DNA from: Deltaproteobacteria bacterium
Lineage (GTDB): Bacteria; Myxococcota_A; Polyangia; Polyangiales; JADJMO01
Direction: 5' to 3'
Assembly: GCA_025363655.1 (NCBI GenBank)
Contig: JANYDK010000082.1
Coordinates: forward strand, 1 to 64,000
DNA: 64,000 bases
A model generated the notes under the pieces. That model worked only from the letters and a program-made list of their open reading frames with translations, searched no databases and was not told where the DNA came from. Shown here in pieces: positions 18,644-60,274 of this stretch. Position numbers and translations under genes: made by a program. The number at the start of each line of letters is the position of its first letter. Position 1 is the first letter of the stretch.

Positions 18644-20521
18644 GTGGGGAAACCGCCGGAGGACGGGCGCAACACGACGCCATCGATCGGCCCGGCGACC
18701 GTGAGCGGGCCGCCGCCGGAGGAGTTCCCCGCGGCCGCCGAGCACCAGCCGCGGCTGACGATGGATCCGCGCGTCGGCACCGTGCTCTCCGATCGCTACA
18801 TGGTGATGAAGCGCCTCGGGCAGGGGGGCATGGCGCGCGTCTACTTGGCGCGGCACCAAATCATCGGTCGCAGCGTCGCCATCAAGGTGCTGCTCCCGCA
18901 CCTGGTCGAGGACGCGCTCATCGTTCGTCGCTTCGTCAACGAGGCGCGCGCCGCCGGGATGATCGGCCATCCGAACATCGTCGAGTCGGTCGACATCGGC
19001 ACCACCGACGACGGGCTGCCGTTCCTCGTCCTCGAATACCTCGAGGGCACCAGCCTCAGCGACGAGGTCGTGCGCGTGGGGCCGATGCCGGTCGAGCGCG
19101 CGGTCGGCATCGCCCTGCAAATCGCTTCGGCGCTGGCGGCGGCGCACGCGCAGTCGATCATCCATCGCGATCTCAAGTCGGAGAACGTCTACCTCGTCGA
19201 GCGCGACGGCCGCGCCGATCACGTGAAGGTGCTCGATTTCGGCGTCTCCAAGTTCGCCGGCGGCGTCAAAGATCAGAAGAGCCTCACGGCGCAGGGCTCG
19301 GTCCTCGGCACGCCGGAGTGCATGGCGCCCGAGCAGTTCATCGATCCCGACTCGGTCGACGCGCGCATCGACGTCTACGCGCTGGGCGTCCTTCTCTACG
19401 AGCTGCTCGGCGGGAAAACGCCTTTCCACGGCATCCCTTTTCCCAAGGTCCTGCACAGCATCGTCCACGAGGTGCCGGCGCCGCTCACGCAGAAGCGGCC
19501 CGACGTGCCGACGGAGCTCGACGCGCTGGTGCAGCGGGCGATGGCCAAGTCGCGCGACGATCGTCCGGCGTCGATGGACGAGCTCTACGAGATGCTGTTG
19601 CCGTTCGCTGGCAAGGCGCCGCCGCCGAAGTTCGTCGCCCGTCCGTCGACGCCCGACGGCGCGGGCATTCCGATGACCTATCGGCTCCCTCCGCGGGGCG
19701 CTCAGTCGACAGCGCTGAAGGCGTCGGCGCCCGCCGAGTCGTCGGCCGATCGAACGATGGTCTCCGGTCCGCACGCGCTCGGGCTCGGCGCGACGCAACG
19801 AGACGGTGCAGCGCCTCCGCCGGTGCGCGTCGTGGGCGCAGCTGCTCCACATGGCACCGATGGTCGTTCGACAGCCTCCGCAACCTCGGCGCCGGCAACG
19901 CCACAACGCGAGAGAGCGGGCTCGCGACTCTCGATCTTCGTCGCCCTCGCAATCGTCCTCATCGGCGCACCGGCCACCTATTTCGCGCTAAGAAGTGCCG
20001 GAAAAACGAGCACCGAGGGCTCTTCGACGACCCCGACCCCGCCTCCGCCCGCGAGCGGAACGGGCTCTGCGACGATCGCTGCGAGCACGACGACGAACAT
20101 GACCGCAAGCGCGAGCGACAAGCCCGCGGGCGCGAGCGCGACGACGACCGTACTGCCAGCGAGCAGCGTCGCCCTCGCGGTCCTCTGCCCGTTGCCCGGC
20201 GCGCGCGTCACCTTCCGTGGCCGTACGACGGCGCTGCCGTTCACCGACATCGTCAGCGCCGGCACGCAGACCGAGCCGATCGAGGTCAGCGCCGAAGGGC
20301 ACGAAGGCCGTCGCTACTTCGTCCGCGTCGATCATCCGATGTCGGTCACCGCCAAGCTCCCCACCGGCAAGGCCATCGTCGTCGACGCCACCGCCGCCGA
20401 GACCAGCGCCGCGCTCTCCGGAGGAGCCCCGGAGATACAGAAGTTTCCCGGTGCTCCCACGACCTCGGCGAAGGCGAGCGCGTCCGGCAAACCGACCGAC
20501 GACATCACCTTCGATCGCTGA
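18644..20521 (+). CDS. Transmembrane Ser/Thr protein kinase A
   Basis: The protein has 625 residues from GTG 18644. The kinase domain covers 50-320: glycine loop GQGGMARVY (59-67), Lys81 in AIKVL, Glu100, catalytic HRDLKSEN (Asp176), DFG (Asp198) and GTPECMAPEQ. A Pro/Ser/Ala-rich linker leads to one membrane helix at about 427-447 (FVALAIVLIGAPATYFAL). After it comes a Thr/Ser/Ala-rich stretch and a small PEGA-like beta domain (about 510-590). TATACT at 18631-18636 sits where a -10 element would make a leaderless transcript starting at or next to the GTG; ATG 18761 is the alternative start. The receptor gene starts nine bases downstream. I infer that the outer domain senses the envelope and shares an operon with its receptor. 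Confidence 0.9.
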   Translation: MGKPPEDGRNTTPSIGPATVSGPPPEEFPAAAEHQPRLTMDPRVGTVLSDRYMVMKRLGQGGMARVYLARHQIIGRSVAIKVLLPHLVEDALIVRRFVNEARAAGMIGHPNIVESVDIGTTDDGLPFLVLEYLEGTSLSDEVVRVGPMPVERAVGIALQIASALAAAHAQSIIHRDLKSENVYLVERDGRADHVKVLDFGVSKFAGGVKDQKSLTAQGSVLGTPECMAPEQFIDPDSVDARIDVYALGVLLYELLGGKTPFHGIPFPKVLHSIVHEVPAPLTQKRPDVPTELDALVQRAMAKSRDDRPASMDELYEMLLPFAGKAPPPKFVARPSTPDGAGIPMTYRLPPRGAQSTALKASAPAESSADRTMVSGPHALGLGATQRDGAAPPPVRVVGAAAPHGTDGRSTASATSAPATPQRERAGSRLSIFVALAIVLIGAPATYFALRSAGKTSTEGSSTTPTPPPPASGTGSATIAASTTTNMTASASDKPAGASATTTVLPASSVALAVLCPLPGARVTFRGRTTALPFTDIVSAGTQTEPIEVSAEGHEGRRYFVRVDHPMSVTAKLPTGKAIVVDATAAETSAALSGGAPEIQKFPGAPTTSAKASASGKPTDDITFDR

Positions 20522-20530
20522 AAGCGCACC

Positions 20531-23434
20531 ATGAACCGACGTCAGCTCACCGCCGTCGTCGTCCTCGCCGGGCTCTCCATCGCGGGCGCGGTGCTTTCTC
20601 CGGTCGCGCACGCCGACGACGTCGCCGACGAAGCCGACCTCCAGTTCCAACTCGGCGCCACGCGCTACAAGGCCGGCGACTTCCTCGGCGCGCTCGAGCA
20701 CTTCCTCGCCAGCAACCGCCTCGCGCCCAACCACAACGTCGTCTTCAACATCGCGCGTTGCTACGAGCGGCTCGAGCGCTACGCCGATGCATATCGATCG
20801 TATGCAATTGCCCTCGAGGGTGAGCAGAACCCCGACAAGCGCAAATCGATCAGCGATTCGCTGGCCGAGATCACGCCCAAGGTCGCGGTCCTCGACGTCG
20901 AGACCGACCCTCCCGGCGCCACCATCTACCTCAATCGGAAAGACCTCGGCGCACGTGGCGCGGCCCCACGACTCTTCGGGCTCAGCGCCGGCAAGTACAC
21001 CGTCATCGCCGAGCTCGCCGGCTACGAAGCGAAGACCTCGGGCGAGGTGACCATCGCGGTCGGCACCAAGACCACCGTCAACCTCGCGCTGGTACCGCTC
21101 CTCGCCACCGTCACCGTCACGGGCGCGGCAGCGACGGGCGCATCGGTGCGCGTCGACGACGCCAACGGCAAGGCCGAGTGCGTCGCTCCTTGCAGCGTCA
21201 AGCTCCTGCCTGGTCACCACACGCTCTTCCTCACGCGCGAAGGCTTCCAGCGCGCCGAAGTACCGCTCGATCTCGCGCCCAAAGCCACCCTCGAGGTGCG
21301 CCCCCCGATGTCGGTGCAGACCGGCAGCGTCGTCGTCAACTGCGACCTCCGCGGCGCGCTCATCGAGGTCGACGGAAAGTCGATGGGCTTCACGCCCGCC
21401 GTCGTTCAAGTGCCGCTCGGCGATCATCAGCTCAAGATCTCGCTCGCCGGCTATCGTCCGGAAGAGCGCCTGGTCAAAGTCGGTGCGACGGGCGACACGA
21501 CGGTCGAGGTGCAGCTCACCGAATCGTCCGAGGTCATCGCGGCGTCACGCGCGGCAGAGTCGGTCGAGGACGCCCCCGCCTCGGTCACCATCATTCCCAA
21601 GTACGAGCTCCTCGGGATGGGCTATCCGACCATCGCCGAAGCGCTGCGCGGCGTCCGCGGCGTCTACGTCAACGACGACCGCAGCTATTCGAGCCTTGGT
21701 TTTCGTGGCTTCGCGCATCCGGGCGACTACGGCAACCGGGTCCTCGTCACCATCGACGGGCAACCGACCAACGACAACTACATCGGTTCGTCTTACGTCG
21801 GCTTCGACGGCCGCGTCGATCTCGACGACGTCGATCGCATCGAGGTCATTCGCGGCCCGGGCTCGGCGCTCTACGGAACGTCGGCCTTCTTCGGCGTCGT
21901 CAACTTGGTCACGCGCAGTCGCAACTCGCCGACCCACGTCGAGGCCGGCGTCTCCGCGGTCGAATACGGCGTCCTCCGCGGCCGCATCCACGCGACCTAC
22001 AAGATCGACGACGAGGCCGGGTTCTGGATGTCGCTCTCCGGAGCGCGCACGCCCGACGGCCGCGACTTCACCATCGCCGAGTACGCCACCGACGGCGCGA
22101 CCGGCCAGAGCATCGGCAACGACGGCTTCAACGCCGGCACGCTGAGCGGCCGCGCGTGGTGGAAATCGCTCACTTTCCAGTGGTTCTACACGGCGCGGAA
22201 GAAGCGCCTTCCGACCGGCATCTACGACAGCGACTTCCCTTCGCACGACACCACGTTCTTCGATCGTCGCGCCTTCGGTGAGCTGCGCTTCGAGAAGGCC
22301 TTCGGCGAGACGCTGGTCTTGAGCCGCGCGCACGTGAACGTCTACAATTTCGATCAACAGCTCGCGTATCCCAACGATCCGGCGAACGACACCACCGGCT
22401 ACGAGACCGACAGCTTCCGCGGCACTTGGTTCGGCCTCGAGCAGCGCGCGGCGGCGGCGCTGGTCCCCAATCGTCTCCGCGTCACCGTCGGCGGCGAGGG
22501 GCAATACCACCTCAAGACACATCAATTCAACTCGACCGAGTTCGGCGGGAGCCTCCTCGATCGCAACGATCCATTTTGGCTCGGCACTGGCTATTTACTC
22601 GCCGATTGGACGCCGACCTCGGGCGTGAAGATCTCACCCGCCGCGCGCGCCGACTACTATTCGACGGTCGGATTTTCGGTCAATCCGCGCCTCGCGATCG
22701 CGCTCCACGCGACGCCGACGACGACCGTGAAGATCCTCGGCGGCAAGGCCTTCCGCGTCCCCAGCGTCTACGAGCTCTTCTTCGTCTCGGGGGCGCAACG
22801 GGCGCCGAGCTCGCTCAAGCCAGAAGAAATCTACTCGGGCGAGCTCGAGCTGAACCAACGCTTCTCGAGCACCGTTTCCGCCACGCTCGCGGGCTACGTC
22901 AACTACGTGCACCGCTTGATCGTGCTCCAGGGCGGCGGCTCGACGGCCGATCAGAACTACTACGCCAACTCCGACTTTCCCGTGCTCTCGAGCGGCTTCG
23001 AAGGAGAGATACGGCGCGACTTTCGCCAAGGGTGGATGATCTCCGCGCAAATTTCACTGCAGAAAACCCGCTATCTGCACGCGGGCAGCGAGCGTCGCGA
23101 GGTCCCCAACTCGCCCGAGCTCCTCGCTGGGGCGAAGGTCGGCATCCCCATCTTGCAGAAGGTGCTCGGCGTGATGTCGCGCTGGTCGCTCCTCGGTCCG
23201 CGTTGGGATCGCAACGAGAAGGCCGCCGATCCGCCGCAAGGAAAGCTCGACGGCGCGCTCGTCTGGGACGTGGTCTTCGGCGGCGAGGCCGAGCACCTCG
23301 GCGTGCGCTACGGGCTCGGCGTCTACAACGTCCTCGACACGCGCTGGGCGACGCCGGTGAGCGGCGAGTTCCGCCACCGGACGATGGTGCAGAGCGGGCG
23401 CACGCTCTACCTCTCGCTGGCGGTGACGATCTAG
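20531..23434 (+). CDS. TonB-dependent receptor with N-terminal TPR and three PEGA-like domains
   Basis: The protein has 967 residues. The signal peptide ends ..SPVAHA. Residues 35-112 are TPR-like (FQLGATRYKAGDFLGALEHF). Three PEGA-type beta units follow at about 117-186, 193-258 and 266-330 (GATIYLNRKDLG, GALIEVDGKSMG). The plug covers about 342-455 (DRIEVIRGPGSALYGT) and the barrel runs to the end (YLSLAVTI). Receptors normally enter the plug directly; the TPR-PEGA front end matches the partner proteins of kinases B and C. I infer that the front end is a periplasmic reporter that tells kinase A the receptor state. It begins nine bases after kinase A. Confidence 0.9.
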   Translation: MNRRQLTAVVVLAGLSIAGAVLSPVAHADDVADEADLQFQLGATRYKAGDFLGALEHFLASNRLAPNHNVVFNIARCYERLERYADAYRSYAIALEGEQNPDKRKSISDSLAEITPKVAVLDVETDPPGATIYLNRKDLGARGAAPRLFGLSAGKYTVIAELAGYEAKTSGEVTIAVGTKTTVNLALVPLLATVTVTGAAATGASVRVDDANGKAECVAPCSVKLLPGHHTLFLTREGFQRAEVPLDLAPKATLEVRPPMSVQTGSVVVNCDLRGALIEVDGKSMGFTPAVVQVPLGDHQLKISLAGYRPEERLVKVGATGDTTVEVQLTESSEVIAASRAAESVEDAPASVTIIPKYELLGMGYPTIAEALRGVRGVYVNDDRSYSSLGFRGFAHPGDYGNRVLVTIDGQPTNDNYIGSSYVGFDGRVDLDDVDRIEVIRGPGSALYGTSAFFGVVNLVTRSRNSPTHVEAGVSAVEYGVLRGRIHATYKIDDEAGFWMSLSGARTPDGRDFTIAEYATDGATGQSIGNDGFNAGTLSGRAWWKSLTFQWFYTARKKRLPTGIYDSDFPSHDTTFFDRRAFGELRFEKAFGETLVLSRAHVNVYNFDQQLAYPNDPANDTTGYETDSFRGTWFGLEQRAAAALVPNRLRVTVGGEGQYHLKTHQFNSTEFGGSLLDRNDPFWLGTGYLLADWTPTSGVKISPAARADYYSTVGFSVNPRLAIALHATPTTTVKILGGKAFRVPSVYELFFVSGAQRAPSSLKPEEIYSGELELNQRFSSTVSATLAGYVNYVHRLIVLQGGGSTADQNYYANSDFPVLSSGFEGEIRRDFRQGWMISAQISLQKTRYLHAGSERREVPNSPELLAGAKVGIPILQKVLGVMSRWSLLGPRWDRNEKAADPPQGKLDGALVWDVVFGGEAEHLGVRYGLGVYNVLDTRWATPVSGEFRHRTMVQSGRTLYLSLAVTI

Positions 23435-23484
23435 TTCGGGAATAGCCGAGCTCGCGAAGGCGCTGAGCTGACGGGAGGAAGCGC

Positions 23485-24081
23485 GTGACGATGAAGCCCC
23501 CGCGGCGCCTGATTTCAGCCCTTTCGCTGCTCGCGACGCTCGGTCCGGCGTCTCTCTCGGGCGCTTGTGTCGATACGACGTACGCGCGGCCGACCACGGT
23601 CGACGACGGGCGCACCGACGATCACTGGCTCGACGGCCCGCGTTGCACCGCGAACACGCCCTTCGATCCGGCGCTCGAGACCGAGGTGATCGAGCCGGGG
23701 ACGGGCGAGATCGTCGAACGAGGAATGACGGTGCGCGTGCACTTCCTCGTCACCACGCCGAGCGGCACCGTCCTCTACGACACCCACGCGCATGGCTCGC
23801 CACCGGACGACGTCGTCGTCGGCAGCACGCCCGTCGTCTGCGGTTTCGAGCGAGGGCTCCTCGGGATGCACGCCGGAGAACGTCGTCTGATTCGCGTCCC
23901 GTGGACGCTTGCGTTCGGAGAGGACGGTCGCTTTCCGAACGTCGGGCCTCGCAGCGACCTCATTTTTTTGGTCGATCTCTACTTGCCCGTCGATCACACG
24001 AATCCGGTGATTCTTCCGCTGCCGCAAGGGTGGTCGAAGCCCAGCTTCAGCGCCACCCGGCCCATCCGCATCAACCGCTGA
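23485..24081 (+). CDS. FKBP-type peptidyl-prolyl isomerase, lipoprotein
   Basis: This 198-residue protein starts at GTG 23485, with GGGAGGAA about six bases upstream; ATG 23491 is two codons inside. The signal peptide ends SLSGAC, a lipobox. The FKBP domain covers about 70-175: EVIEPGTG, MTVRVHFLVTTPSG, CGFERGLLGMHAGERR and the final strand LIFLVDLYL. It is expected to catalyse prolyl isomerisation, or act as a chaperone, on exported proteins in the periplasm or at the surface. It lies 50 bases after the TonB receptor and probably shares its operon, occupying the lipoprotein slot of the kinase cassettes. Confidence 0.85.
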   Translation: MTMKPPRRLISALSLLATLGPASLSGACVDTTYARPTTVDDGRTDDHWLDGPRCTANTPFDPALETEVIEPGTGEIVERGMTVRVHFLVTTPSGTVLYDTHAHGSPPDDVVVGSTPVVCGFERGLLGMHAGERRLIRVPWTLAFGEDGRFPNVGPRSDLIFLVDLYLPVDHTNPVILPLPQGWSKPSFSATRPIRINR

Positions 24082-24096
24082 CTCCTTCGAGTCGAC

Positions 24097-24912: not shown

Positions 24913-25026
24913 GCGTGAAACCTCCGAGGCGTCACGGTGAACGTGAGCAACCCCATGGAAAGACGAGCTGGTGGCGTCGGGATTCACGTTTACAGCAAAA
25001 ACAGGGCCGCAAACGATACCTACTCG

Positions 25027-26469: not shown

Positions 26470-26493
26470 CCCACGCGCGGACCGAGAAAAAAG

Positions 26494-27699
26494 CTACGTT
26501 CCGGCGTCTTTGCACTTGGTCGCGATGGGTACGGCGTCGACCACTCTGGTCGCCGGCTGGATGTTGGCGACGTCGAAGGCGATGCCCACCGACATCGTGT
26601 TGCACTCGACGCCGGTCGCTTGGAGGAATGGCGCGCCTTCGACGAGATCCATCAGCTGCTTGACGTTGCGTAGGAGCGAATCGTAGAGCGGCGTCCCCGG
26701 ACAGAAGCCCGCTGCGCTCGCCACCGGCGCGAGGACGCCTTCGAACTTGTCGTAGGGGAGGCCCCCAGCGAGGACCGCGTGCGAGCCCCCCGAGTGATCT
26801 TCGAGGAGCTGCAGCGTGATCACCGCGCCGACGAGGTTGAACTCGGCGGGCACCGAGTTGATCGGCACCGGCGCGACCATCGGCCCGCCCTCGCCCGAGA
26901 CCCAGGTGTTGCCGCGCACGTACCCGTCGGGGAACACGCTGCGCGGTTTGCCGAGGTCGTGATCGGTCACCGAGACGGCGTCGATCTCGCGGATGTCGGT
27001 GCCGTCGAATTTCGGCGGCGTCGTCGGATAGCCGGAAAAATCAGCCGCTTTGTAGAGCCTTCCGGGCGCATAGGCGTCGTCGCGTCCGTCGTCGAGGTCG
27101 TCGATGACGAGGATCCAGGTGTTGTTGCCGCGCGCGATGGCGTCGTTGGCGTCTTGCTCGAAGGCGGCGTCGTAGAGCGCGATCAGCGGGACGAATTGCC
27201 CGCCGAAGTTGTTGTCGCGGCAGTCGACGCCGTCGACGAGGCTGTCCTTCTGCGCGCCGGCCGGACGAAGACACGTGCCGGTATTGTTGTCGGATTCGAT
27301 CGGGCCGGTGCACGTGCGATCGATGTCGTAGCCGAGCCCGCGCCAGGCCTCCTTCGTCGGCGTGCCGGTGCTGTCGAGCGCGCCCAATTGGAAGCGCTTG
27401 GCGATGGTCCAAATCGTCTTCCCCTTGCCCGAGGGCGCGCGATCGCCAGTCGGCCTTTGCGGAGGTCGTGCTGCCGTGGCGCTGCCAGCGTCGGGGTCGG
27501 TCTCCACCGTGGGCACGTCCCTGGCGACGTCGGCGCTGCCAGTGTCCAGCGTCGCGTCGCGACCGGCGTCGCTCGTGGCGGGACGATCCGAGAGCTCGTC
27601 GTACCCGAGCACCTGCGCGCAGTGGCAAAGAAAGCTCACCGCCGACAAGACCGACATCGCCGACACGAGCAGGCCGAGTCGAGCGGCCCGCTGCTTCAT
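26494..27699 (-). CDS. Lipoprotein of kinase B cassette
   Basis: The protein has 401 residues. The signal is followed by an FLCHC lipobox-like sequence, then an acidic Asp/Thr-rich tether (DAGRDATLDTGSADVARD). The mature region (about 90-395) is Cys-containing and beta-rich, with stretches such as DRTCTGPIESDNNTGTC. It resembles predicted surface lipoproteins of unknown family. Its start overlaps the stop of the TPR/PEGA gene (27699), so it is the third member of the kinase B operon. It may be a ligand-binding or scaffold subunit; that is inferred from position only. Confidence 0.72.
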   Translation of the reverse strand: MKQRAARLGLLVSAMSVLSAVSFLCHCAQVLGYDELSDRPATSDAGRDATLDTGSADVARDVPTVETDPDAGSATAARPPQRPTGDRAPSGKGKTIWTIAKRFQLGALDSTGTPTKEAWRGLGYDIDRTCTGPIESDNNTGTCLRPAGAQKDSLVDGVDCRDNNFGGQFVPLIALYDAAFEQDANDAIARGNNTWILVIDDLDDGRDDAYAPGRLYKAADFSGYPTTPPKFDGTDIREIDAVSVTDHDLGKPRSVFPDGYVRGNTWVSGEGGPMVAPVPINSVPAEFNLVGAVITLQLLEDHSGGSHAVLAGGLPYDKFEGVLAPVASAAGFCPGTPLYDSLLRNVKQLMDLVEGAPFLQATGVECNTMSVGIAFDVANIQPATRVVDAVPIATKCKDAGT

Positions 27700-28721
27700 C
27701 AGAAGCTACCGATCGCGCCGATTCCGGCGCCGTCTGCCGAGGCCCATGGGGTCACCGTCGTCCCCGTCGCCTTGTCTTTGCCGCTGCCGGGCCCTGCGCC
27801 GCTCGGCGTGAGGAAGTACCAGACGAGACCCGAGACGAGCGCGGCCGCGCCGATCGAAGTGACGATGGTCGACGCGTTGGCGAGCGACTTCCCCGACGAG
27901 AGCCCGTCGGGATCGCACAGCTTGGTGCCATTGCACGCCGAGTCCTTCTTCTTCATCGACGCATAACCGAGGCCGAGCCCGACGCCGACGCCCACCACTC
28001 CGACGACGGTGACGACGAGCGGCGCGACGCGCGAAGGAGCCGATTTCGGCACTCCCGACGCATCGAGCGTCGTCGCGTTCGGATCGACATCGAGCGCGAC
28101 GGAGATTGTCTTCGTCTGCTTCTCGGCGAGGTTCACCGAGCCTTCGAACGAGAGGCGCCCCGGTGCTTCGGCGTGCACCGCGTGATCGCCTGGGTCGACG
28201 TCGATTTGCGTGTCCCAGGCCGCCGGCAAGAGCGGCTCACCGTCGAGCATGATCTTGAGGCCGACGGGATGATCGCCCGGCGTCTTGATGGAGATGTGCG
28301 GAATGCGCGGCTCGAGGGCCTTCACCTCCGCGCGCGCGAAATCGGCCCATTTTTGCCGCTCCGGCTTTGGATCGAGCGGAGCTTTGCGCGCCAGCTCACG
28401 GAAGTCGCGCGCCGCGCTCGCGACCATCCCCAGACCCTTCTCGGTGTACGCGAGGTTGCGCAGCGCACCGAGCGCAGCTGGGTAGAGCTCGTACGCCTTG
28501 CGGAAGGAGTCGCGCGCTTCTTTGCACACGACGACGTCCGTCGGCTTGTCGTCGCAGTGGCCCTTCTCCATCTTCTCGACGCCCTTGTCGAAGAGATCGG
28601 TGGCGAGCTGCTTGGTCTTCGCCTCGCTCGCGTCTTTCTCGTCGGCGGCGAAGACGCTCGAAGGAAGCGAGGAGAGGGACACGCTCACCGCGACGACGGC
28701 GGCAATCGCGCGCGTCCGCAT
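27699..28721 (-). CDS. TPR/PEGA-like two-helix membrane protein, partner of kinase B
   Basis: This 340-residue protein starts at ATG 28721, which overlaps the kinase stop (TGATG). It has a signal peptide (1-25), a TPR-like region at 38-112 (FRKAYELYPAALGALRNLAY) and a PEGA-like beta domain at about 137-212. A helix at 232-255 and a second at 283-304 flank a loop with Cys263 and Cys269 and then GKS. The homologue at 58521 keeps this order, both Cys and GKS. The exported N-terminus puts the TPR in the periplasm. I infer a sensor or adaptor for kinase B. Confidence 0.8.
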   Translation of the reverse strand: MRTRAIAAVVAVSVSLSSLPSSVFAADEKDASEAKTKQLATDLFDKGVEKMEKGHCDDKPTDVVVCKEARDSFRKAYELYPAALGALRNLAYTEKGLGMVASAARDFRELARKAPLDPKPERQKWADFARAEVKALEPRIPHISIKTPGDHPVGLKIMLDGEPLLPAAWDTQIDVDPGDHAVHAEAPGRLSFEGSVNLAEKQTKTISVALDVDPNATTLDASGVPKSAPSRVAPLVVTVVGVVGVGVGLGLGYASMKKKDSACNGTKLCDPDGLSSGKSLANASTIVTSIGAAALVSGLVWYFLTPSGAGPGSGKDKATGTTVTPWASADGAGIGAIGSF

Positions 28722-30214
28722 CACATCTCGTCTTTCTTCTTCCAAAGGTCGTCGGATTTCTTGTTCAAATCGGTCGGCGGAGGCGTCACGGCGGTCGCCG
28801 TCGTCGTCGGCGGCGCGGCAGTCTTCTCGTCGACGGGCGTCTTCCCCGCACCCGGTTTCGGCTTCCAAGGAGCGAGCGGAGTCTTCGCGGTGGCGACGCC
28901 CTTCGCGCTCGCCTCTTCACTCGCAGCGGCCGTCGTCGTCGCAGAGGGCTGGGCCGAAGCCACGGGTGGTGACGTTGCCGCCGTCGAAGTCGATGTAGCC
29001 GGCTTCTCTCCAGTGCTGGCTGCTGCCGCTGGTTTTTCCGGTGATTGCGCGGCCGCGGCGCCTTGGCTGGTGGAGCTCCCGCGGTTCTGCGCGAGGTAGA
29101 GACCGACGCCGACACCCGCGATGGCGAGGAGACCGAAGGTGGCGAAGAGCGGCGCCCGACTGCGCGGCTGCGGAGGCGCCGAGCTGGTCACGGCCAAGGC
29201 CGGCTTGGCACCACCACCGACGGTGTGTTGCAGGCCCGTGACCGAGTCGGCCAGCTGAATCGCGAGACGCTCGGCGGCGGTCGAAGAGAACGCGCCGGTG
29301 CCGCCGTTGGCGCTGAGCCCCGAGACCATCGAGAGCGAATCGGCGAGCTCACGCGCGCTCTGGAAGCGCTGATCGGGCCGTTTGGCGAGACCCTTCTGCA
29401 CCCACAAATCGAACTCCGCGGGGAGATCGGGCGCGAGCTGCGTCGCCACCGGCGGCTCGGTGGAGACGATGCGCATCGCCAGCTCGCTGAGCGAGCCCGA
29501 TCCGAACGGAGGCTTGCCCGCAGCCATTCGGTAGGCCATCGCGGCGACCGCCCAGAGATCGGAGCGCGCGTCGATCGCCGAGTCGCCGGAGATTTGCTCC
29601 GGGCTCATGTAGTTCGGCGTGCCGATGAGGGCGCCGGCGCGCGTCGACTGGTTCTCGTCGTTCTCCAACGTCGCCTTGGCGACGCCGAAGTCGAGGAGCT
29701 TCACCATCACCTCGCCCTCCTCCTCGCAGAGGAAGACGTTGGCCGGCTTGAGATCGCGGTGGATGACGCCAGCGCCGTGCGCGACGTGGAGCGCGCGACA
29801 GAGCTGCGAGATGACCTTGGCGACGAGGCTGATGGGCAGACGACGCTCGCGCTTGAGGCGCACCTCGAGCCCTTCGCCCTGCAGCAGCTCCATCACCAGG
29901 TAGGGAGTGCCCTCGGCGCTGATGCCGTGATCGGTGACGCGCGTGATGTGACGCGACGCTTCGCCGAGCTTGGCCGCGAGCCGTGCTTCACGCTCGAAGC
30001 GCGAACGAGGTTCGACCGACATCGCGACCGAGCCGTGGAGGAACTTCACCGCGACGAGGTGCCCGAGCGTCGCGTGCCGCGCGCTCCACACCGAGCCCAT
30101 CGCGCCTTCACCACGCGGTTCGACGAGGCGGTACTTGCCCTCCACGAGGAGACCCTCGCGTAGCATCGACCCGCCTGTCTCCGTCGCCGCCTCTCCCATC
30201 GTTCTCCGCACCAT
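28721..30214 (-). CDS. Transmembrane Ser/Thr protein kinase B
   Basis: The protein has 497 residues. The kinase domain covers 28-300: GEGAMGSVW (35-43), Lys57, HRDLKPANV (Asp154), DFGVAK (Asp175) and GTPNYMSPEQ. A membrane helix lies at about 355-375 (LFATFGLLAIAGVGVGLYLA), followed by a Thr/Ser/Pro-rich periplasmic tail ending KKKDEM. The stop codon overlaps the ATG of the partner gene by one base, so the two products are coupled. Catalytic residues are complete, so it should be active. It is probably the first gene of the three-gene operon; 118 bases separate its start from the DUF3501 stop, which may hold the promoter. Confidence 0.9.
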   Translation of the reverse strand: MVRRTMGEAATETGGSMLREGLLVEGKYRLVEPRGEGAMGSVWSARHATLGHLVAVKFLHGSVAMSVEPRSRFEREARLAAKLGEASRHITRVTDHGISAEGTPYLVMELLQGEGLEVRLKRERRLPISLVAKVISQLCRALHVAHGAGVIHRDLKPANVFLCEEEGEVMVKLLDFGVAKATLENDENQSTRAGALIGTPNYMSPEQISGDSAIDARSDLWAVAAMAYRMAAGKPPFGSGSLSELAMRIVSTEPPVATQLAPDLPAEFDLWVQKGLAKRPDQRFQSARELADSLSMVSGLSANGGTGAFSSTAAERLAIQLADSVTGLQHTVGGGAKPALAVTSSAPPQPRSRAPLFATFGLLAIAGVGVGLYLAQNRGSSTSQGAAAAQSPEKPAAAASTGEKPATSTSTAATSPPVASAQPSATTTAAASEEASAKGVATAKTPLAPWKPKPGAGKTPVDEKTAAPPTTTATAVTPPPTDLNKKSDDLWKKKDEM

Positions 30215-46631: not shown

Positions 46632-46651
46632 ATCGCAGCATTTCCACGCCG

Positions 46652-47475: not shown

Positions 47476-47483
47476 TCGGCCCT

Positions 47484-50717: not shown

Positions 50718-50720
50718 AAT

Positions 50721-52624: not shown

Positions 52625-52646
52625 TTTCGTGGTGAGTTCGCGCTGC

Positions 52647-55424: not shown

Positions 55425-55460
55425 CTCGGCTCCTTAGCACGCCTCTCCTTTGGCATGCGG

Positions 55461-56429
55461 CTAGCTCGCTTCACCCTTCACGGCCAACGCCTCTTCGGCC
55501 AGCGCCTCGTACGACATCTTCTGCGCGCGCTCGAGCTCGACCTCGTCGTTGAGGCGCGCGAGGTACTGCGGGTGGACGCCGGCGAGACGCGAGAGCACCG
55601 GACCGAACGCCCTGCGCAACGCCGGATTCTCGAACGCGACCTGCAGCGTGTGCATGAAGCGACCGAAGGGACGATCTTTCACGCCCGGCTTCTCGCCGAG
55701 GAGTTGGAAACGACGAAACGCCTCGCGCAGCCGAGTGCCCGTCGGATCGACACGACCCATCGGGACGAAGAAGACGTCGCGGAAGAAGGGCTTCACCCGC
55801 CAGATGACATTGGCGAAGGTCCACCACGCGCGCGCCTCTTCCCGCAGCGTCCCGCGCGGGCGCGTCGCGTCTTTCTCGCGGTACTCGGCCGACGCGTAGT
55901 ACTCGACCATGTGGTAGTCGATGGCGATGTGTCGTGACTCGTCGCGGTTGATGAGCCGCATCGCCGCGGCGCTCATCGGATCGGCGACGTAGTCGTTGAT
56001 CGAGCGGAGGAGCGCGATGTCGAGCATCAGCTCGCCGGCGGTGACGTAGGCATTGGCGACGTCGTCGGCGAGGAGGCGGATCGCGGAGATGAAGTGCGGC
56101 GCGAAGACGCGGAGACTCTCGCTCCGCTCGTATTTCCGGAACTCGTGCACGTCGTAATAGCGCGCGAGACGCTCGGCGGTTTCGGCGTGGCGAATCTCGT
56201 CGACGATGAAGGTCTTGAAAATCGCCTTCAGCGTCGGCTCCTTGGCGCGGCGCTCTTGTTCGCGAAAGAGCGCGCCCGCGAGCCGCTCGATTTCCGCCAT
56301 GTCGGTGAAGAGTTGGCAGATGGCCTCCTCGTCGTCGCGCGACATCGGCCGAGGTGGACGCGACCAATCGAGATCGGTGACCTTCCACTGATCGCGCCGG
56401 CACTTCTCGAGCATCACCGCGAGGTCCAT
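55461..56429 (-). CDS. Ferritin-like/AurF-type diiron protein
   Basis: The protein has 322 residues from ATG 56429; the frame extends to 56750 without a coding look. Iron ligands are suggested by two ExxH motifs: VDEIRHAETAE near 90 and NRDESRHIAIDYH near 170, plus Glu residues in GALFREQE and TAGELMLDIA. This fits the AurF-like group of diiron N-oxygenases and related ferritin-like proteins, but the substrate is unknown. Its start is 45 bases from the divergent TerB-like gene, so the two may share regulation. Confidence 0.75.
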   Translation of the reverse strand: MDLAVMLEKCRRDQWKVTDLDWSRPPRPMSRDDEEAICQLFTDMAEIERLAGALFREQERRAKEPTLKAIFKTFIVDEIRHAETAERLARYYDVHEFRKYERSESLRVFAPHFISAIRLLADDVANAYVTAGELMLDIALLRSINDYVADPMSAAAMRLINRDESRHIAIDYHMVEYYASAEYREKDATRPRGTLREEARAWWTFANVIWRVKPFFRDVFFVPMGRVDPTGTRLREAFRRFQLLGEKPGVKDRPFGRFMHTLQVAFENPALRRAFGPVLSRLAGVHPQYLARLNDEVELERAQKMSYEALAEEALAVKGEAS

Positions 56430-56474
56430 CGCCCGATCGTGCCAGAAGAGCCGAGGGGCGTGTACTCTCGGGAG

Positions 56475-56915
56475 ATGGAGTACACCCGGCTGGGCAAGGA
56501 CGTGTTTCTCGCGCTCGCGACCATCGCCTGGGCCGACGGCGTGGTCGCGCCGGCAGAGGCCGAGGCGCTGGTGCGTGCCGCCCGCGCATCGGGCCTCGCG
56601 GGGGACGATCTCGCCGCCGTCGAAGCAGCGCTCCGCGAACGCAGCGCACTCGACGTCGTCGGCACGCTCCACCTCGACGATGAAGAAAAACTCTATGTCT
56701 TCTGCCTCGCGCATTGGATCGCCGGCGTCGACGGGTTCGTCGACGATCAAGAGAAGGTCGCGCTCACCGAGCTCGGCGATCGACTCGGGCTCTCGGCCGA
56801 CGATCGCGCGCGCGCGGCAGGAACGGCGGCGCTCCTCGAGTCCGACAGCACCGCCTCGACGCGCCGCAGCCTCACCGATTTGGCACGCGCCATCGAGCGC
56901 GCCGCGGCCGAGTGA
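56475..56915 (+). CDS. TerB-like protein
   Basis: The protein has 146 residues from ATG 56475 (GGGAG adjacent). The helical sequence FLALATIAWADGVVAPAEAEAL and the later acidic VDGFVDDQEKVALTEL resemble the two half-motifs of TerB/DjlA-type domains, which bind metal through acidic residues. The family was named from tellurite resistance but is often part of general envelope-stress modules. No other Ter genes are nearby. It is divergent from the AurF-like gene. Confidence 0.7.
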   Translation: MEYTRLGKDVFLALATIAWADGVVAPAEAEALVRAARASGLAGDDLAAVEAALRERSALDVVGTLHLDDEEKLYVFCLAHWIAGVDGFVDDQEKVALTELGDRLGLSADDRARAAGTAALLESDSTASTRRSLTDLARAIERAAAE

Positions 56916-57159
56916 CGGAACGCGAGCTCAGCTAGCGCTCGCCGGCCTGGCGCCGCGCGTCCGTTGAGAGCGTGCGGGTTTGGGTCACGACGGTGAAACG
57001 CAGAGTGTCGCGGCGCTTACAGCACGGGCAGCGGCGAGCTGCCCCACATGTGGCACTCTGCGACATCGAAGAGCGGCGAGTTCAAAAAATCACAAAACAT
57101 CCTAAAAAAAGCTTCGGTCGGGACTTGACCACGATCACGCGTGCTAGCGTGACCCTTCG
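56916..57159 (+). promoter_or_regulatory. Kinase C promoter region with phased A-tracts
   Basis: This 244-base gap contains A-tracts at 57084-57089, 57094-57097 and 57104-57110, whose centres are 9 and 11-12 bases apart, so the DNA is likely curved or acts as an UP element. TTGACC follows at 57125-57130 as a possible -35. The best -10-like sequence (TAGCGT at 57145-57150) is only 14 bases away, so the sigma class is unclear. The rest of the gap shows nothing I can interpret. Confidence 0.5.
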
Positions 57160-58524
57160 ATGGAGCTCGCGGCTCTTGCTCGGGGCCTTCGGGTGGCCGA
57201 CCGCTATGAGCTCGAGCGTCCCCTTGCGCGCGGGGGGATGGGCGAGGTCTGGAAGGCGAGGCACGCCACCTTGGGTGGTGACGTCGCCATCAAGTTCATC
57301 CTTCCGGAAGCCGCGGAGGGGACTGAAGCCACCGAGCGTTTTCGCTTCGAGGCGCAGGTCGCGTCACGGCTGTCGAAGCGATCGCGACACATCGTCTCGG
57401 TGATCGATCACGGCGAGTTCCTCGGGCGCTCGTATCTGGTGATGGAGCTCGTCGACGGGCTCTCGCTCGACGACTGGATGATGCGTCAGCGCCTCGATCT
57501 CCCGCTCACCTCGGCGGTCGTCACCCAGATCGCCAAGGGCCTCGCGCAGGCGCATGCCGACGGCCTCTTCCATCGCGATTTGAAGCCGTCGAACGTGCTC
57601 CTGACGAGCGACGAAGAGGGCCACGCGCTCGCGAAGATCCTCGACTTCGGCATCGCCAAGGCGAGCCGCCGTCACCACTCGATGCCTCCTCCGGGATGGA
57701 TCGAGAAAGATCACACCACCGAGCAAGGCGTGATCCTCGGCACGCCCGCGTACATGAGCCCTGAGCAGGCGAGGGGCCTGAAGAGCCTCGATTTCCGCTG
57801 TGACATCTGGTCTCTGGCAGTCATCGCCTACGAGGCTCTCACCAGTCAGCTCCCCTACGACGGCGAGACGACCGCCGATCTCCTCGTCAACCTCTGCACC
57901 CAACGTCCGATCCCGGTGCGCAGGTACGCGCCCGAGCTCCCCGAATCCCTCGACGCGCTCTTCGCCCGCGCCTTCGCCTCGCGCATCGACGATCGCTTCC
58001 AATCCGCGCTGGCCTTCGCCGAGGGCATGACCGCCATCCTCGAGACCAGCGAGTCCAACGCGCCGCTCCCGCCCGTGGTCCGTACCCCCGAGACCCTCGT
58101 CGTCGCGGCCAGCCCACCCTCGACGCCAGCGATCAGCGCCGACTCGCGTCCCCAACTCCCGATCCGACGTCCCCGTATCGGCGTCGCTTTGGCAGTCGTC
58201 GCGACACTAGTCGCCGCAGTGCTCGTCGCCGTTCTCCTTCGCGGCAGTAAGCCCACGGTCACCGTCGAAGACCCCACGATCGTCACCGTGCCCGCCAAGC
58301 CGCCCCCACCCAAAGTGCCTGAATCGACGCAAATTCAAGCCCCGTCGCCGTCTCCATCCCCGTCCGCCTCTCCCTCGCCCCCCAAAACCAAACCCCTCAA
58401 GCCCACGCCCACGCCCGCACCCACGCCCACGCCCGCACCCACGCCCACGCCCGCACCCACGCCCACGCCCACGCCCGCACCCACGCCCACGCCCACGCCC
58501 GTCGACAAGGGCGACATCCTATGA
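57160..58524 (+). CDS. Transmembrane Ser/Thr protein kinase C
   Basis: The protein has 454 residues. The kinase domain covers 15-290: ARGGMGEVW (23-31), Lys45, HRDLKPSNVLL (Asp140), DFGIAK (Asp162) and GTPAYMSPEQ. A membrane helix lies at about 345-366 (VALAVVATLVAAVLVAVLL), then an Asp/Thr/Val segment, and finally a Thr-Pro-Ala-Pro repeat that ends PVDKGDIL. The stop overlaps the next ATG (ATGA). Catalytic residues are complete. It heads a three-gene cassette and shares the layout of kinase B. The outer tail is short, so the sensor is probably the partner protein. Confidence 0.92.
   Translation: MELAALARGLRVADRYELERPLARGGMGEVWKARHATLGGDVAIKFILPEAAEGTEATERFRFEAQVASRLSKRSRHIVSVIDHGEFLGRSYLVMELVDGLSLDDWMMRQRLDLPLTSAVVTQIAKGLAQAHADGLFHRDLKPSNVLLTSDEEGHALAKILDFGIAKASRRHHSMPPPGWIEKDHTTEQGVILGTPAYMSPEQARGLKSLDFRCDIWSLAVIAYEALTSQLPYDGETTADLLVNLCTQRPIPVRRYAPELPESLDALFARAFASRIDDRFQSALAFAEGMTAILETSESNAPLPPVVRTPETLVVAASPPSTPAISADSRPQLPIRRPRIGVALAVVATLVAAVLVAVLLRGSKPTVTVEDPTIVTVPAKPPPPKVPESTQIQAPSPSPSPSASPSPPKTKPLKPTPTPAPTPTPAPTPTPAPTPTPTPAPTPTPTPVDKGDIL
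58402..58500 (+). repeat. Hexamer repeat cccacg/cccgca encoding a Thr-Pro/Ala-Pro tail
   Basis: About 16 copies of cccacg or cccgca encode alternating Pro-Thr and Pro-Ala at the end of kinase C. It is a likely site of length variation. The next gene has a shorter Pro-Thr stretch (about 59178-59208), and related sequence occurs in intergenic DNA at 14162 and 62375. Confidence 0.75.
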
Positions 58525-59576
58525 ACCGCCCCCTCTCTCTCCTCCTCTCGCTCACCCTCTCTCTCTCCTCCTTCTCCCTCTCTTCTCTCTCTCTCCCCAC
58601 GCTCGCCAACGCCGACGGCGCCAGCGACGCCAAAGACCTCTTCGCCCGGGGTCGCGACCTCCGCGCCAAAGGCGATTGCCAAGGCGCGCTTCCACTCTTC
58701 CGCAAGGCCTACTCCGTTTACCCCGCCGGTCTCGGCAGCCTCCGCAATGCCGCCGAGTGCGAAGAGAAGCTCTCCCTCTGGGCCTCGGCGCGGCGCGATT
58801 GGCTCGATCTCAAGCGCGCGCTCCTCGTCGTCAAAGACGTGAAATACGCTGGCTGGGATGCTGATTGTGACGCGGCGGCCACGCGCCTGGCGCCGAAAAT
58901 CGCGCGCCTCGTGGTGCGGGTGACCGACGCCGGAGGCGAGGATCTCTCGGCGCGCGGCGGGCTGAAGGTGACCCTCAACGAGGAAGCGATCGAACGAACG
59001 TTGCTCGGCACCGATCTCGAACGCGATCCGGGCGCGTACGTCGTCGTCGCGACGCTCGACGAAACGACGGGCACGTCGAAGGCGACGCTGGTTGCCGGAG
59101 AGTCGAAGGCCGTGACGGTGACGTTGACCCTTCCGGCGAAGCCTCTCGTGCCGCCGCCCGTCGTCGAGGTCGAGAACCCCACGCCCACGCCGACGCCCGC
59201 TCCCGAGACGCCGATCACCGATCACGATCGCGGCGCGACGATGCGAACGTTCGGCTACGTCGGCGTCGCGCTCGGTGGCGCCTTCGCCATCGGCACCATC
59301 GCCGCAATCGCGGTGCGCAGCTCGGCGCTCTCCAGCGTGTCGAACAAGTGTCCCGACTACACCACCGCGGCGTGCGGCCCCTCGGTGCGCGACGACGTCG
59401 ATCGTGGCAAGAGCGCGGCGACGCTGGTGAACGTCTTCGGCGCGCTCACCCTCGTCTCTGTCGGCGTCGGCGCGACCTTGATTTTGACGAACCCGAAGCC
59501 CGATCGACCGCCCGTCGCGCTCTCGCCCCTCTTCCTCGTCGGCGGCGGTGGCGCGGCCATTTCCGGTGGATTTTGA
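58521..59576 (+). CDS. TPR/PEGA-like two-helix membrane protein, partner of kinase C
   Basis: The protein has 351 residues. It has a signal peptide (1-31), a TPR-like segment at 36-100 (FRKAYSVYPAGLGSLRNAAE), a PEGA-like domain (about 125-205), a Pro-Thr linker (220-230), a helix at about 244-265, a loop with Cys277 and Cys285 then GKS, and a second helix at about 301-322. It parallels the 27699 protein domain by domain, including the paired Cys and GKS. The start overlaps the kinase stop (ATGA) and its own stop overlaps the next ATG (TGATG), so the three genes are tightly coupled. Confidence 0.82.
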   Translation: MNRPLSLLLSLTLSLSSFSLSSLSLPTLANADGASDAKDLFARGRDLRAKGDCQGALPLFRKAYSVYPAGLGSLRNAAECEEKLSLWASARRDWLDLKRALLVVKDVKYAGWDADCDAAATRLAPKIARLVVRVTDAGGEDLSARGGLKVTLNEEAIERTLLGTDLERDPGAYVVVATLDETTGTSKATLVAGESKAVTVTLTLPAKPLVPPPVVEVENPTPTPTPAPETPITDHDRGATMRTFGYVGVALGGAFAIGTIAAIAVRSSALSSVSNKCPDYTTAACGPSVRDDVDRGKSAATLVNVFGALTLVSVGVGATLILTNPKPDRPPVALSPLFLVGGGGAAISGGF

Positions 59577-60274
59577 TGCGTCGCCTCCCTTCTTTCCTCT
59601 TCGCCGTGCTCCCGCTCGGCGTCACTTTCGCTGCCCTCGGCGTGGCCTGCTCCTTCCCCGACGTCTCCATCGACGACAGGCTGGGCGACTCGTCGTTCGA
59701 CAGCGCCGGCTCCGACACCGATCTCGGCGGTGACGCGGCGAAGGACACCTCGAGCGGTGACGGTGGTGATGGCGGTGATGTCGGTGACGTCTCGCATGCG
59801 GACGTCGGCGATACGAACGTCGAGGGTGGCGGCGAGGTCGGGCCCGATGGCGGTGATGGCAGTGACGCGAAGCTCGACGTCGGCGACACACGCGATGCCG
59901 GCGATACGACGCCGACCTGCACGAAGGCCTGCGACTGCGACGACGACACCGACAAGGCCAACGCCGGCACTTGCGGCGGACTCGACTGCGACGACTACGA
60001 TCCACGCGCCAGCAGCAAGATCACTGCGTTCAACGCGACCGACTTGGCGACACTGACGACCAAGGGCGACTGGAACTGCAACAAGACGTTGGAGAAGCAG
60101 TATCCGATCAACGTCAGCTGCTCGAAGTTGGCGCTCGGCGGGTGCGACGGACAACAAGGATTTTCCGGCGATCCTGCGTGCGCGACGAGCGGCGTCTACG
60201 TCTTCTGCAAGACCAACCTCGCAGTCGCGTGCGTCGAAGATCACAACGAGACGAGGACGCAGGGCTGCAAATGA
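59576..60274 (+). CDS. Lipoprotein of kinase C cassette
   Basis: The protein has 232 residues. The signal peptide ends in LGVAC, giving a lipoprotein. A long acidic Asp/Gly/Thr-rich tether (about residues 25-110) leads to a Cys-rich domain (about 115-230; CTKACDCDDDTDKANAGTC, CGGLDCDDYDP), with many Cys and Asp. The C-terminal region (CDGQQGFSGDPACATSG) also pairs Cys. It fills the same slot as the 26494 protein but is not an obvious sequence homologue, so the slot rather than the protein is conserved. It could be a calcium-binding surface protein. Confidence 0.75.
   Translation: MRRLPSFLFAVLPLGVTFAALGVACSFPDVSIDDRLGDSSFDSAGSDTDLGGDAAKDTSSGDGGDGGDVGDVSHADVGDTNVEGGGEVGPDGGDGSDAKLDVGDTRDAGDTTPTCTKACDCDDDTDKANAGTCGGLDCDDYDPRASSKITAFNATDLATLTTKGDWNCNKTLEKQYPINVSCSKLALGGCDGQQGFSGDPACATSGVYVFCKTNLAVACVEDHNETRTQGCK

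What the first reader, a model, noticed from the sequence alone, without database searches (positions are those of the whole stretch)
18644..60274. Three copies of a cassette: Ser/Thr kinase + TPR/PEGA envelope protein + lipoprotein
Kinase B (30214 to 28721), a TPR/PEGA two-helix protein and a lipoprotein overlap head to tail on the minus strand. Kinase C (57160 to 58524), a homologous TPR/PEGA protein (shared TPR motif, two Cys in the loop, GKS, two helices) and a lipoprotein overlap on the plus strand. Kinase A is followed by a TPR-PEGA protein fused to a TonB receptor barrel and an FKBP lipoprotein. Order, tight stop/start overlaps and shared TPR-PEGA architecture suggest a recurrent signalling unit in which a periplasmic TPR/PEGA protein reports envelope or receptor state to the kinase.
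Basis: partly seen in the sequence, partly recalled or inferred. Interest (0 to 1): 0.8.

Follow-up and report, generated by a model that had tools for sequence, protein, structure and literature searches.

The report
Kinase tails that dock envelope partners
In genomes related to myxobacteria, many membrane kinases sit beside a gene for an envelope protein with a TPR domain, and the last few amino acids of each kinase's outer tail change in step with that TPR domain, as if the tail plugs into its own partner across the cell envelope.

Summary
B and C are homologous kinase > TPR/PEGA/two-helix > lipoprotein units. A is a variant: kinase > TPR-PEGA-TonB receptor > FKBP protein. The unit is not local: in the window's genome 29 of 63 genes matching the partner profile have a listed kinase upstream on the same strand. 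In a genome of another family in 5 contigs, 24 of 84 do, against 1.1 expected.

The new result is how the two proteins may connect. Paired kinases have a predicted membrane helix, then about 100 residues of low-complexity outer tail ending in a conserved short peptide. Across 88 kinase>partner pairs the last 8 residues co-vary with the partner's TPR domain (partial r 0.36, 0/500), not with the kinase's own domain (-0.02) or the partner's membrane part (-0.03); the linker shows nothing. It holds in 19 pairs with rearranged gene order (0.37, 0/500), so DNA linkage alone does not explain it.

Best reading: the kinase's C-terminal peptide docks in the TPR groove of a cognate, probably outer-membrane, partner, coupling a TonB receptor or lipoprotein to a Hanks-type kinase. 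Docking is inferred; no complex or assay was run.

The parts
18644..20521 (+). Kinase A: Hanks-type kinase, predicted TM at aa 431-449, 176-aa outer tail
   Evidence: PF00069 E 6e-42; TM and tail
20498..20518 (+). C-terminal tail peptide of kinase A (DDITFDR-COOH)
   Evidence: The 14 other tails seen upstream of homologous TonB-type partners also end in R (DIQLSR, DIILKR, DIRLHR, IKTRR and others); 2 of the 14 are cut fragments without the kinase domain
20531..23434 (+). Partner A: signal peptide, TPR, 2 PEGA, TonB plug and C-terminal barrel region
   Evidence: PF08308 1.7e-25, PF07715 3.4e-20, TPR_2 below cut-off; family profile E 7.6e-19
23491..24081 (+).
   Evidence: PF00254 E 1.6e-15
28721..30214 (-). 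Kinase B: Hanks-type kinase, predicted TM aa 356-374, 123-aa outer tail (gene caller prefers the start at 30199)
28724..28753 (-). C-terminal tail peptide of kinase B (DDLWKKKDEM-COOH)
   Evidence: Related loci L154, L156, L157 end DLWKK[KT]DEM (L154 and L157 seen as tail fragments only); L158, L159 end SGW[GS]NK[HQ]EL; L155 ends differently and looks frame-shifted
27699..28721 (-). Partner B: signal peptide, TPR, PEGA-like domain, two hydrophobic helices, C-terminal beta-hairpin ending in Phe
28305..28649 (-). TPR domain of partner B (aa 25-139), proposed docking groove
   Evidence: AlphaFold pLDDT above 90 for most of it; TPR matches in PDB
27915..27935 (-). Cys pair (C263, C269) at the tip of the helix hairpin of partner B
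   Evidence: Invariant in 21 of 21; C-x(2-12)-C in 170 of 194
26494..27699 (-). Lipoprotein B: Cys followed by AQVLGYDEL, acidic linker, unnamed conserved domain
   Evidence: homologs follow the partner in L154-L157
57160..58524 (+). Kinase C: Hanks-type kinase, predicted TM aa 342-360, 94-aa outer tail
   Evidence: PF00069 E 3.9e-38
58504..58521 (+). C-terminal tail peptide of kinase C (DKGDIL-COOH)
   Evidence: The pair nearest by TPR, L145, ends FDKGEVL
58521..59576 (+). Partner C: same architecture as partner B
59576..60274 (+). Lipoprotein C (CSFPDVSIDD..., acidic linker, Cys-rich end)

Best explanation
Each cassette encodes a split receptor kinase. The kinase sits in the inner membrane with its catalytic domain in the cytoplasm; one helix and about 100 residues of Pro/Ala/Ser/Thr-rich tail reach outwards. 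The last 6-10 residues of the tail are a short peptide that docks in the TPR groove of its own partner. The partner's TPR-PEGA domain is periplasmic and is held at the outer membrane either by a TonB-type barrel (A) or, probably, by a Gly-rich helix hairpin with a Cys-pair tip and an aromatic C-terminus (B, C). The partner, often with a cognate lipoprotein carrying a variable outer domain, passes on receptor or envelope state by holding, releasing, clustering or pulling on the tail, which changes kinase activity. Different peptide/TPR pairings would insulate dozens of such units in one cell. Shown by sequence: gene pairing, architecture, conserved tail ends, tail/TPR co-variation. Inferred: physical docking, outer-membrane placement, signal direction, role of the lipoprotein.
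For: Pairing beyond chance in two genomes of different families. A predicted TM helix after the kinase domain in 107 of 108 paired kinases, with a median 103 aa beyond it (IQR 90.5-113). Tail ends are far from random: 2.8 bits at the last residue, 2.3 at -2, 1.8 at -5, against a null maximum of 0.26; Phi-x(2,3)-R-x-COOH in 32 of 102 paired kinases, 1 of 21 unpaired ones, 37 of 741 other proteins, 35 of 5916 internal tail windows. Tail ~ TPR partial Mantel r 0.359 given kinase, PEGA and TM (0/500); tail ~ kinase given TPR -0.023; tail ~ TM given the rest -0.029; linker ~ TPR 0.042 (74/500). The signal remains among remote kinases (0.335, 0/200) and repeats within the window's family (0.205), within the other loci (0.544) and between the two (0.259), each 0/300. 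In 19 rearranged pairs r is 0.372 (0/500), and 0.170 (0/500) against normal-order pairs, duplicates removed (0.417 and 0.179 with one duplicate). A divergent kinase ending HHGVTSSGL has a partner whose TPR is nearest to those of kinases ending AHEGVTSSGI and VHEGVTSSGL. TPR residue 101 is Ala with R-type and Val with G-type tails in 65 of 66 rows. Partners with a Cys-rich N-domain instead of the TPR: 4 of 4 go with a C..P[FY]...C tail, found in no other kinase of the set. The kinase A unit is widespread in the order: in 15 of 19 TonB-type loci the kinase lies directly upstream (13 with the domain seen, 2 as a cut tail), all 15 tails ending in R.
Against: No complex was predicted or measured. 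Net charge of the tail does not follow net charge of the whole TPR domain (rho -0.13, p 0.17); the four sites that do (rho -0.46) were picked afterwards. On the kinase tree the tail class changes 9 times, but only 4 independent pairs stand on well-supported branches (3 agree, 0 against, 1 no difference; p 0.25). Mantel permutations do not fully correct for relatedness. PEGA also carries a weak signal (0.059, 8/500 in normal pairs; 0.071, 11/500 across orders). 35 of 108 tails fit neither main class, those of kinases B and C among them. 30 of 63 profile matches in the window's genome had no listed kinase within 3 kb, though 5 of these were later seen beside one; the family may also work elsewhere or in trans. 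In 4 of 19 TonB-type loci the gene upstream is not a kinase. Outer-membrane placement of the two-helix partners is indirect.
Confidence: 0.62

Rival explanations
1. DNA linkage only: the tail-coding end of the kinase gene abuts the TPR-coding start of the partner gene, and recombination in the low-complexity linker moves both together, so they co-vary without touching.
For: In normal-order pairs the association falls with distance along the partner gene: TPR 0.36, PEGA 0.05, TM -0.03.
Against: Co-variation persists when the gene order is divergent, convergent or partner-first, where the two ends are not neighbours: r 0.372 (0/500) among 19 such pairs, 0.170 (0/500) against normal-order pairs. 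The linker, which would travel with the tail, shows none. Tail ends are conserved as peptides.
Confidence: 0.12
2. The partner is a substrate or scaffold: the tail peptide recruits it, but it carries no signal to the kinase.
For: The partner is usually encoded downstream of the kinase, as an output gene might be; partner-like genes without a kinase nearby also exist.
Against: The partner's folded domain is behind a signal peptide, out of reach of ATP and the catalytic domain. In A the partner is a TonB-type receptor, a natural input. Third-gene lipoproteins carry varied outer domains.
Confidence: 0.15
3. The association reflects expansion by duplication of a kinase-partner operon, with co-inheritance as the only cause of tail similarity.
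For: Close relatives keep kinase, partner, lipoprotein and tail together.
Against: Tail similarity does not follow kinase-domain similarity once TPR similarity is allowed for (-0.023), and the signal stands among kinases under 40% identical.
Confidence: 0.11

Closest known systems
TonB-dependent cell-surface signalling (FecA-FecR, HasR-HasS, PupB-PupR)
   Same: An outer-membrane receptor with a periplasmic N-terminal domain is paired with an inner-membrane regulator; for HasS the outer segment is partly disordered (abstract of PMC3984077; the others from the search listing and recall).
   Different: The regulator is a Hanks-type kinase, not an anti-sigma factor; the receptor N-domain is TPR-PEGA, with no STN domain in the Pfam table; contact is proposed through a C-terminal peptide; many partners are not TonB receptors.
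Ser/Thr kinases with fused outer TPR, WD40 or sulfatase-modifying-factor domains (Planctomycetota; 26% of Sorangium cellulosum kinases carry TPR)
   Same: Cytoplasmic kinase, one TM helix, TPR mostly on the outer side (passages of PMC11032199).
   Different: There the TPR is part of the kinase polypeptide; here it is a separate gene product matched to a short tail peptide. The sulfatase-modifying-factor domain here sits on third-gene lipoproteins (5 of 20 scanned).
PknG-GlnX-GlnH of actinobacteria
   Same: A kinase receives a signal from separate membrane and extracytoplasmic proteins (passage of PMC11032199).
   Different: PknG is cytoplasmic with its own TPR; no tail peptide and no outer-membrane receptor (recalled).
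PASTA kinases (PknB/Stk1/PrkC)
   Same: Kinase, TM helix, outer part.
   Different: No PASTA repeats found; NF033483 scores 233-286 bits against a cut-off of 450.
TPR domains that bind C-terminal peptides (Tah1, Sgt2, FKBP38 with Hsp90/Hsp70 tails)
   Same: TPR fold; VIA-align Z 11.5-12.1 over 78-92 residues. Recalled: these bind C-terminal EEVD peptides.
   Different: Periplasmic, different peptide ends; a Z near 12 is common for helical repeats (note).

Membership tests
Hanks-type Ser/Thr protein kinases | Pkinase domain above curated cut-off | tested here: met
   131.8-144.3 bits against 31.7 for A, B, C
PASTA kinases (PknB/Stk1) | Outer PASTA repeats; NF033483 above cut-off | tested here: not met
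   No PASTA family in the Pfam table at E<=0.01; NF033483 285.5, 232.6, 246.7 against 450
TonB-dependent receptors (partner A) | Plug domain | tested here: met
   PF07715 73 bits against 23.9
TonB-dependent receptors (partner A) | TonB-type beta-barrel | tested here: inconclusive
   PF00593 not in the table for partner A; NCBIfam receptor models run through the barrel region but below cut-off; the homologue in L077 passes PF00593
TonB-dependent transducers (FecA type) | N-terminal STN signalling domain | tested here: not met
   TPR-PEGA in its place; no STN in the Pfam table at E<=0.01
TonB-dependent transducers (FecA type) | Adjacent anti-sigma regulator and ECF sigma factor | tested here: inconclusive
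   The gene directly upstream is a Pkinase, and so in 13 of 19 TonB-type loci plus 2 cut ones; other flanking genes were not scanned for sigma factors
PEGA-domain proteins (partners B, C) | PF08308 above cut-off | tested here: not met
   No PEGA hit for partners B and C at E<=0.01; 2 of 21 family members hit it. 'PEGA-like' is my reading of the modelled sheet
TPR proteins (partners B, C) | TPR repeats | tested here: inconclusive
   Weak hits only: TPR_16 in 7 and TPR_2 in 6 of 21 members at E<=0.01; modelled helices 25-139 match TPR structures
EEVD-type carboxylate-clamp TPR | Groove binds a C-terminal peptide | not testable with these tools
   Co-variation fits it; no complex model or binding data

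The most novel reading that the evidence does not exclude
A whole order of Myxococcota uses a common wiring rule: inner-membrane Hanks kinases carry outer tails of near-constant length that end in address peptides, each read by the TPR domain of a cognate outer-membrane partner. The cell thereby runs dozens of insulated, envelope-spanning kinase receptors (TonB receptors, other barrels, helix-hairpin proteins with exchangeable sensor lipoproteins), and the peptide/TPR code can be read from genome sequence to assign partners, including unlinked ones.
Probability: 0.45. Interest if true: 0.9.

Novelty: new variant of a known kind. Interest (0 to 1): 0.8.

Why it matters
Myxobacteria hold among the largest sets of Hanks kinases of any bacteria (passages of PMC11032199), and what most of them sense is, as far as I recall, unknown. 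If the tail peptide is an address read by a partner TPR, kinases can be assigned to receptors from sequence alone, tested with short synthetic peptides, and rewired by swapping tails in a harmless laboratory myxobacterium. It would also be another way, besides TonB and anti-sigma regulators, for an inner-membrane protein to read the state of an outer-membrane receptor across the periplasm.

Tried and rejected
Rejected: (1) GKS as a P-loop: not conserved, sits at a hydrophobic helix. (2) A constant lipoprotein as the core of the cassette: B and C lipoproteins unrelated by BLAST; a same-strand lipoprotein within 150 bases, by a simple lipobox rule, follows 78 of 206. (3) Plain charge matching between tail and TPR: rho -0.13. 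(4) A cytoplasmic loop between the two helices by the positive-inside rule: the loop is slightly acidic (K+R 0.119, D+E 0.150 per residue) and the stretch after helix 2 is more basic (0.165, 0.111). (5) Linkage alone as the source of co-variation. (6) Fold of lipoprotein B: AlphaFold mean pLDDT 64.4; Foldseek in PDB gave nothing at E<=0.001, best E 0.72. Foldseek for partner B gave nothing at E<=0.001 either, best 1.1e-3. (7) Rfam (gathering scores) and tRNA scans of the window: nothing.

Limits of the data: the co-variation set comes from high-scoring profile matches in fetched loci, not a random draw. From 102 kinase>partner pairs, 88 were kept (at least 200 profile positions of the kinase domain, partner match starting at profile position 60 or earlier). 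One kept row, L125, has a tail that looks frame-shifted (RRRPIRPRCRRR); it was left as read, and repeats the test without it (0.346, 0/500). Checking for this report showed that L253_3 is a cut copy of partner L252_2 and that these two and L253_1 share one kinase; searches count it more than once, one search does not. Genes were called by a codon-usage script trained on the window.

Literature: full-text searches of an open-access library listed no paper that I recognised, from titles and abstract starts, as describing kinase/TPR-PEGA pairs or tail peptides. Two papers were opened: passages of PMC11032199, abstract and outline of PMC3984077. Perez et al. 2008 and Han et al. 2013, cited there, were not seen.
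Full report
WHAT IS THERE. The window is contig C63, bases 1-64000, of a 9.0-Mb, 150-contig assembly. The nearest named records are metagenome assemblies labelled Myxococcales or Deltaproteobacteria. Codon-based gene calls put kinase A at 18644-20521, its partner at 20531-23434 and an FKBP protein at 23491-24081 (+); kinase B at 28721-30199 (or 30214), partner B at 27699-28721 and lipoprotein B at 26494-27699 (-); kinase C at 57193 (or 57160)-58524, partner C at 58521-59576 and lipoprotein C at 59576-60274 (+). All three kinases pass the Pkinase cut-off. Partners B and C are homologous. Partner A is joined to them only by a profile over its TPR-PEGA part and carries a TonB plug.

THE PARTNER FAMILY. 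An alignment of 21 members from this genome shows signal peptide, TPR, PEGA-like domain, a hydrophobic helix, a loop, a second hydrophobic helix and a C-terminal end (three of the 21, L018, L020 and L023, have a shortened N-domain). Invariant are both loop cysteines, the terminal Phe, one Ala and one Gly. In a wider set of 194 complete two-helix members, 184 end in F or W (other proteins in the same loci: 95 of 938) and 170 keep a cysteine pair. AlphaFold (10 sequences, mean pLDDT 77.6) gives TPR helices at 25-139 and a PEGA-like sheet at 142-207, mostly at about 90 or above, a helix hairpin 232-304 at about 70-75 whose tip holds the cysteines, and a low-confidence beta-hairpin 321-338. The TPR part matches peptide-binding and other TPR structures, a common result for helical repeats. 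The loop is not positively charged and the helices are 20-26% Gly. With the cysteine pair and the aromatic terminus this leans towards an outer-membrane hairpin; that is inference. Neither Pfam at E<=0.01 nor NCBIfam at E<=0.05 names partner B, and partner C has only a weak TPR_16 hit.

IT IS A RECURRENT UNIT. In this genome the profile finds 73 matches, merged into 63 genes. Against 150 listed kinase places, 29 have their nearest kinase upstream on the same strand within 3 kb, 2 downstream, 2 on the opposite strand, 30 none; 5 of the 30 were later seen beside a kinase missing from the list. In G110, another family, 9.5 Mb in 5 contigs, 96 matches were merged into 84; 24 of 84 have a kinase upstream on the same strand within 1.5 kb against 1.09 in 2000 random placements (maximum 6), and 36 of 84 one in any orientation against 4.25 (maximum 12). 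In a phylum sample of 114 genomes the profile rings in 76 at E<=1e-15, in 22 of the 23 of the class (18 of 18 in the order), while kinases are in 108. In all fetched loci, chosen for a partner and so not random, 206 partners split into kinase>partner 102, divergent 13, partner>kinase 11, convergent 5, kinase>x>partner 2, none 50, cut at an end 23; one of the 206 is a cut copy of another. Kinase>partner junctions, counted with a wider partner definition, overlap in 40 of 116 and are within 50 bases in 92 of 116, median 11; other same-strand neighbours overlap in 115 of 572 and are within 50 bases in 317 of 572.

THE TAIL. Of 108 paired kinase rows 107 have a predicted TM helix after the domain, with a median 103 residues beyond it (IQR 90.5-113); of 21 control kinase entries from the unpaired sample 14 have one. 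Measured against internal tail windows, the last residue carries 2.8 bits, position -2 2.3 bits and -5 1.8 bits; random draws reach 0.26 at most. By simple rules, 42 of 108 ends are R-type (R second from last, or a terminal R three or four residues behind a hydrophobic one), 31 G-type (G then F, Y, I or L), 35 neither. Kinases B and C fall in the last group but have conserved ends of their own: DLWKK[KT]DEM in three related loci of B, DKG[DE][IV]L for C and its neighbour L145. The 14 other kinase A-type tails seen all end in R.

CO-VARIATION. For 88 kinase>partner pairs I compared distances of the last 8 tail residues with distances of the TPR, PEGA and membrane parts of the partner and of the kinase domain. 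Tail follows TPR (partial r 0.359, 0 of 500 permutations as large), PEGA hardly (0.053, 22 of 500), membrane part not (-0.029), kinase domain not (-0.023 given TPR). The 8 residues that end 14 before the terminus, the linker control, follow nothing (TPR 0.042, 74 of 500). The result stays when kinases more than 40% identical are left out (0.335, 0 of 200), in two disjoint sets and between them (0.205, 0.544, 0.259, each 0 of 300; PEGA 0.097, 2 of 300, between them), and without the frame-shifted-looking row (0.346, 0 of 500). In a contest of nearest neighbours the tail is closer to the TPR-nearest pair in 31 and to the kinase-nearest in 18 of 51 (p 0.012).

LINKAGE TEST. Tail and TPR are encoded side by side in normal order, so shared recombination could mimic contact. 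In pairs with divergent, partner-first or convergent order the association is r 0.372 (0 of 500) among 19, and 0.170 (0 of 500) between these and 86 normal-order pairs, duplicates removed; PEGA, TM and kinase give 0.050, -0.003, -0.204 among the 19, and 0.071 (11 of 500), 0.049 (40 of 500), 0.010 across. Before removal of a duplicate the figures were 0.417 and 0.179. Concrete cases: divergent L228 ends HHGVTSSGL and its partner's TPR is nearest to those of kinases ending AHEGVTSSGI and VHEGVTSSGL; divergent L250 ends DPFAKRR, nearest TPRs go with SLWDRRH, NPFDRRH and NPFDKRL. A weaker case: convergent L249 ends TDPGF, its nearest TPR is only 35% identical.

SWITCHES. TPR residue 101 (partner B numbering) is Ala with R-type ends in 37 and Val with G-type ends in 28, with one exception among 66 rows (three of which share one kinase); 7 classed rows with another residue there were not counted. 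Sites 41, 75, 92 and 109 tend to swap charge between the two types, but net charge of the domain does not follow the tail. On the kinase tree the tail class changes 9 times; only 4 contrasts are on supported branches, 3 in agreement, 1 without difference. Four of four partners without a normal TPR, having a Cys-rich N-domain, go with kinases whose tail has a C..P[FY]...C motif; no other kinase in the set has it.

UNIT A. The first 460 residues of partner A find relatives in 15 of 37 genomes of the order at E<=1e-30. Of 25 places, 19 span the plug and are counted as the TPR-PEGA-TonB kind; six weaker hits are shorter proteins and are left out. In 15 of these 19, the window's own included, the kinase lies directly upstream (13 with the domain seen, 2 as a cut tail), and in 4 another gene or none is seen there (L304, L307, L317, L321). 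Other TPR-PEGA proteins beside kinases in this genome carry a TonB receptor (L077), a plug (L083), or weak OMP-barrel (L074) or autotransporter (L071) hits. This is the firmest sign that tails reach outer-membrane partners.

THIRD GENE. A same-strand lipoprotein within 150 bases follows 78 of 206 partners. Gly at +5 after the lipid Cys is in 46% of these against 17% of other lipoproteins; the pattern C-x(0,6)-G-Phi-[DEN] is in 20 of 78 against 12 of 179. Of 20 scanned out of 45 candidates, Pfam named sulfatase-modifying-factor domains in 5, Kelch in 1, LTD in 1, STIG1 in 2, Lcl_C (below cut-off) in 1 and nothing in 10. This fits exchangeable sensors on a common anchor; untested.

VERDICT. What is new is the address-like tail end matched to the partner's TPR. 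What is missing is any physical evidence.

Noticed in passing
L067, L069, L217, L241: Partners whose N-domain is Cys-rich instead of TPR pair with kinases ending in a C..P[FY]...C motif; possibly a second docking mode, perhaps with disulfides.
   Followed up: partly
27915-27935 and family members: Cysteine pair (spacing mostly 4-6 residues) at the tip of a Gly-rich hydrophobic helix hairpin, and a C-terminal F/W in 184 of 194; role unexplained.
   Followed up: partly
26494-27699 and downstream lipoproteins of related loci: Lipoproteins after the partner often share a short motif just behind the lipid Cys (like CAQVLGYDEL) followed by an acidic linker and a variable domain.
   Followed up: partly
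L155:6891-9214, L156:6960-9256: Two tandem homologous lipoproteins follow partner B's relatives.
   Followed up: no
L109:162-1505: A kinase without a recognised partner next to it ends GAAGVSSSY, like partnered kinases ending GVSS[FAY] (L073, L074); a candidate for pairing in trans.
   Followed up: no
L252, L253: One kinase lies between two partner genes, divergent from one and directly upstream of the other.
   Followed up: no
window 60281-61513: VWA-domain protein with a lipobox-like start directly after cassette C on the same strand.
   Followed up: no
L125:4172-5413 (same gene in L155): Relative of kinase B whose tail end reads RRRPIRPRCRRR; looks like a frame shift near the 3' end or an assembly error; left as read.
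   Followed up: no
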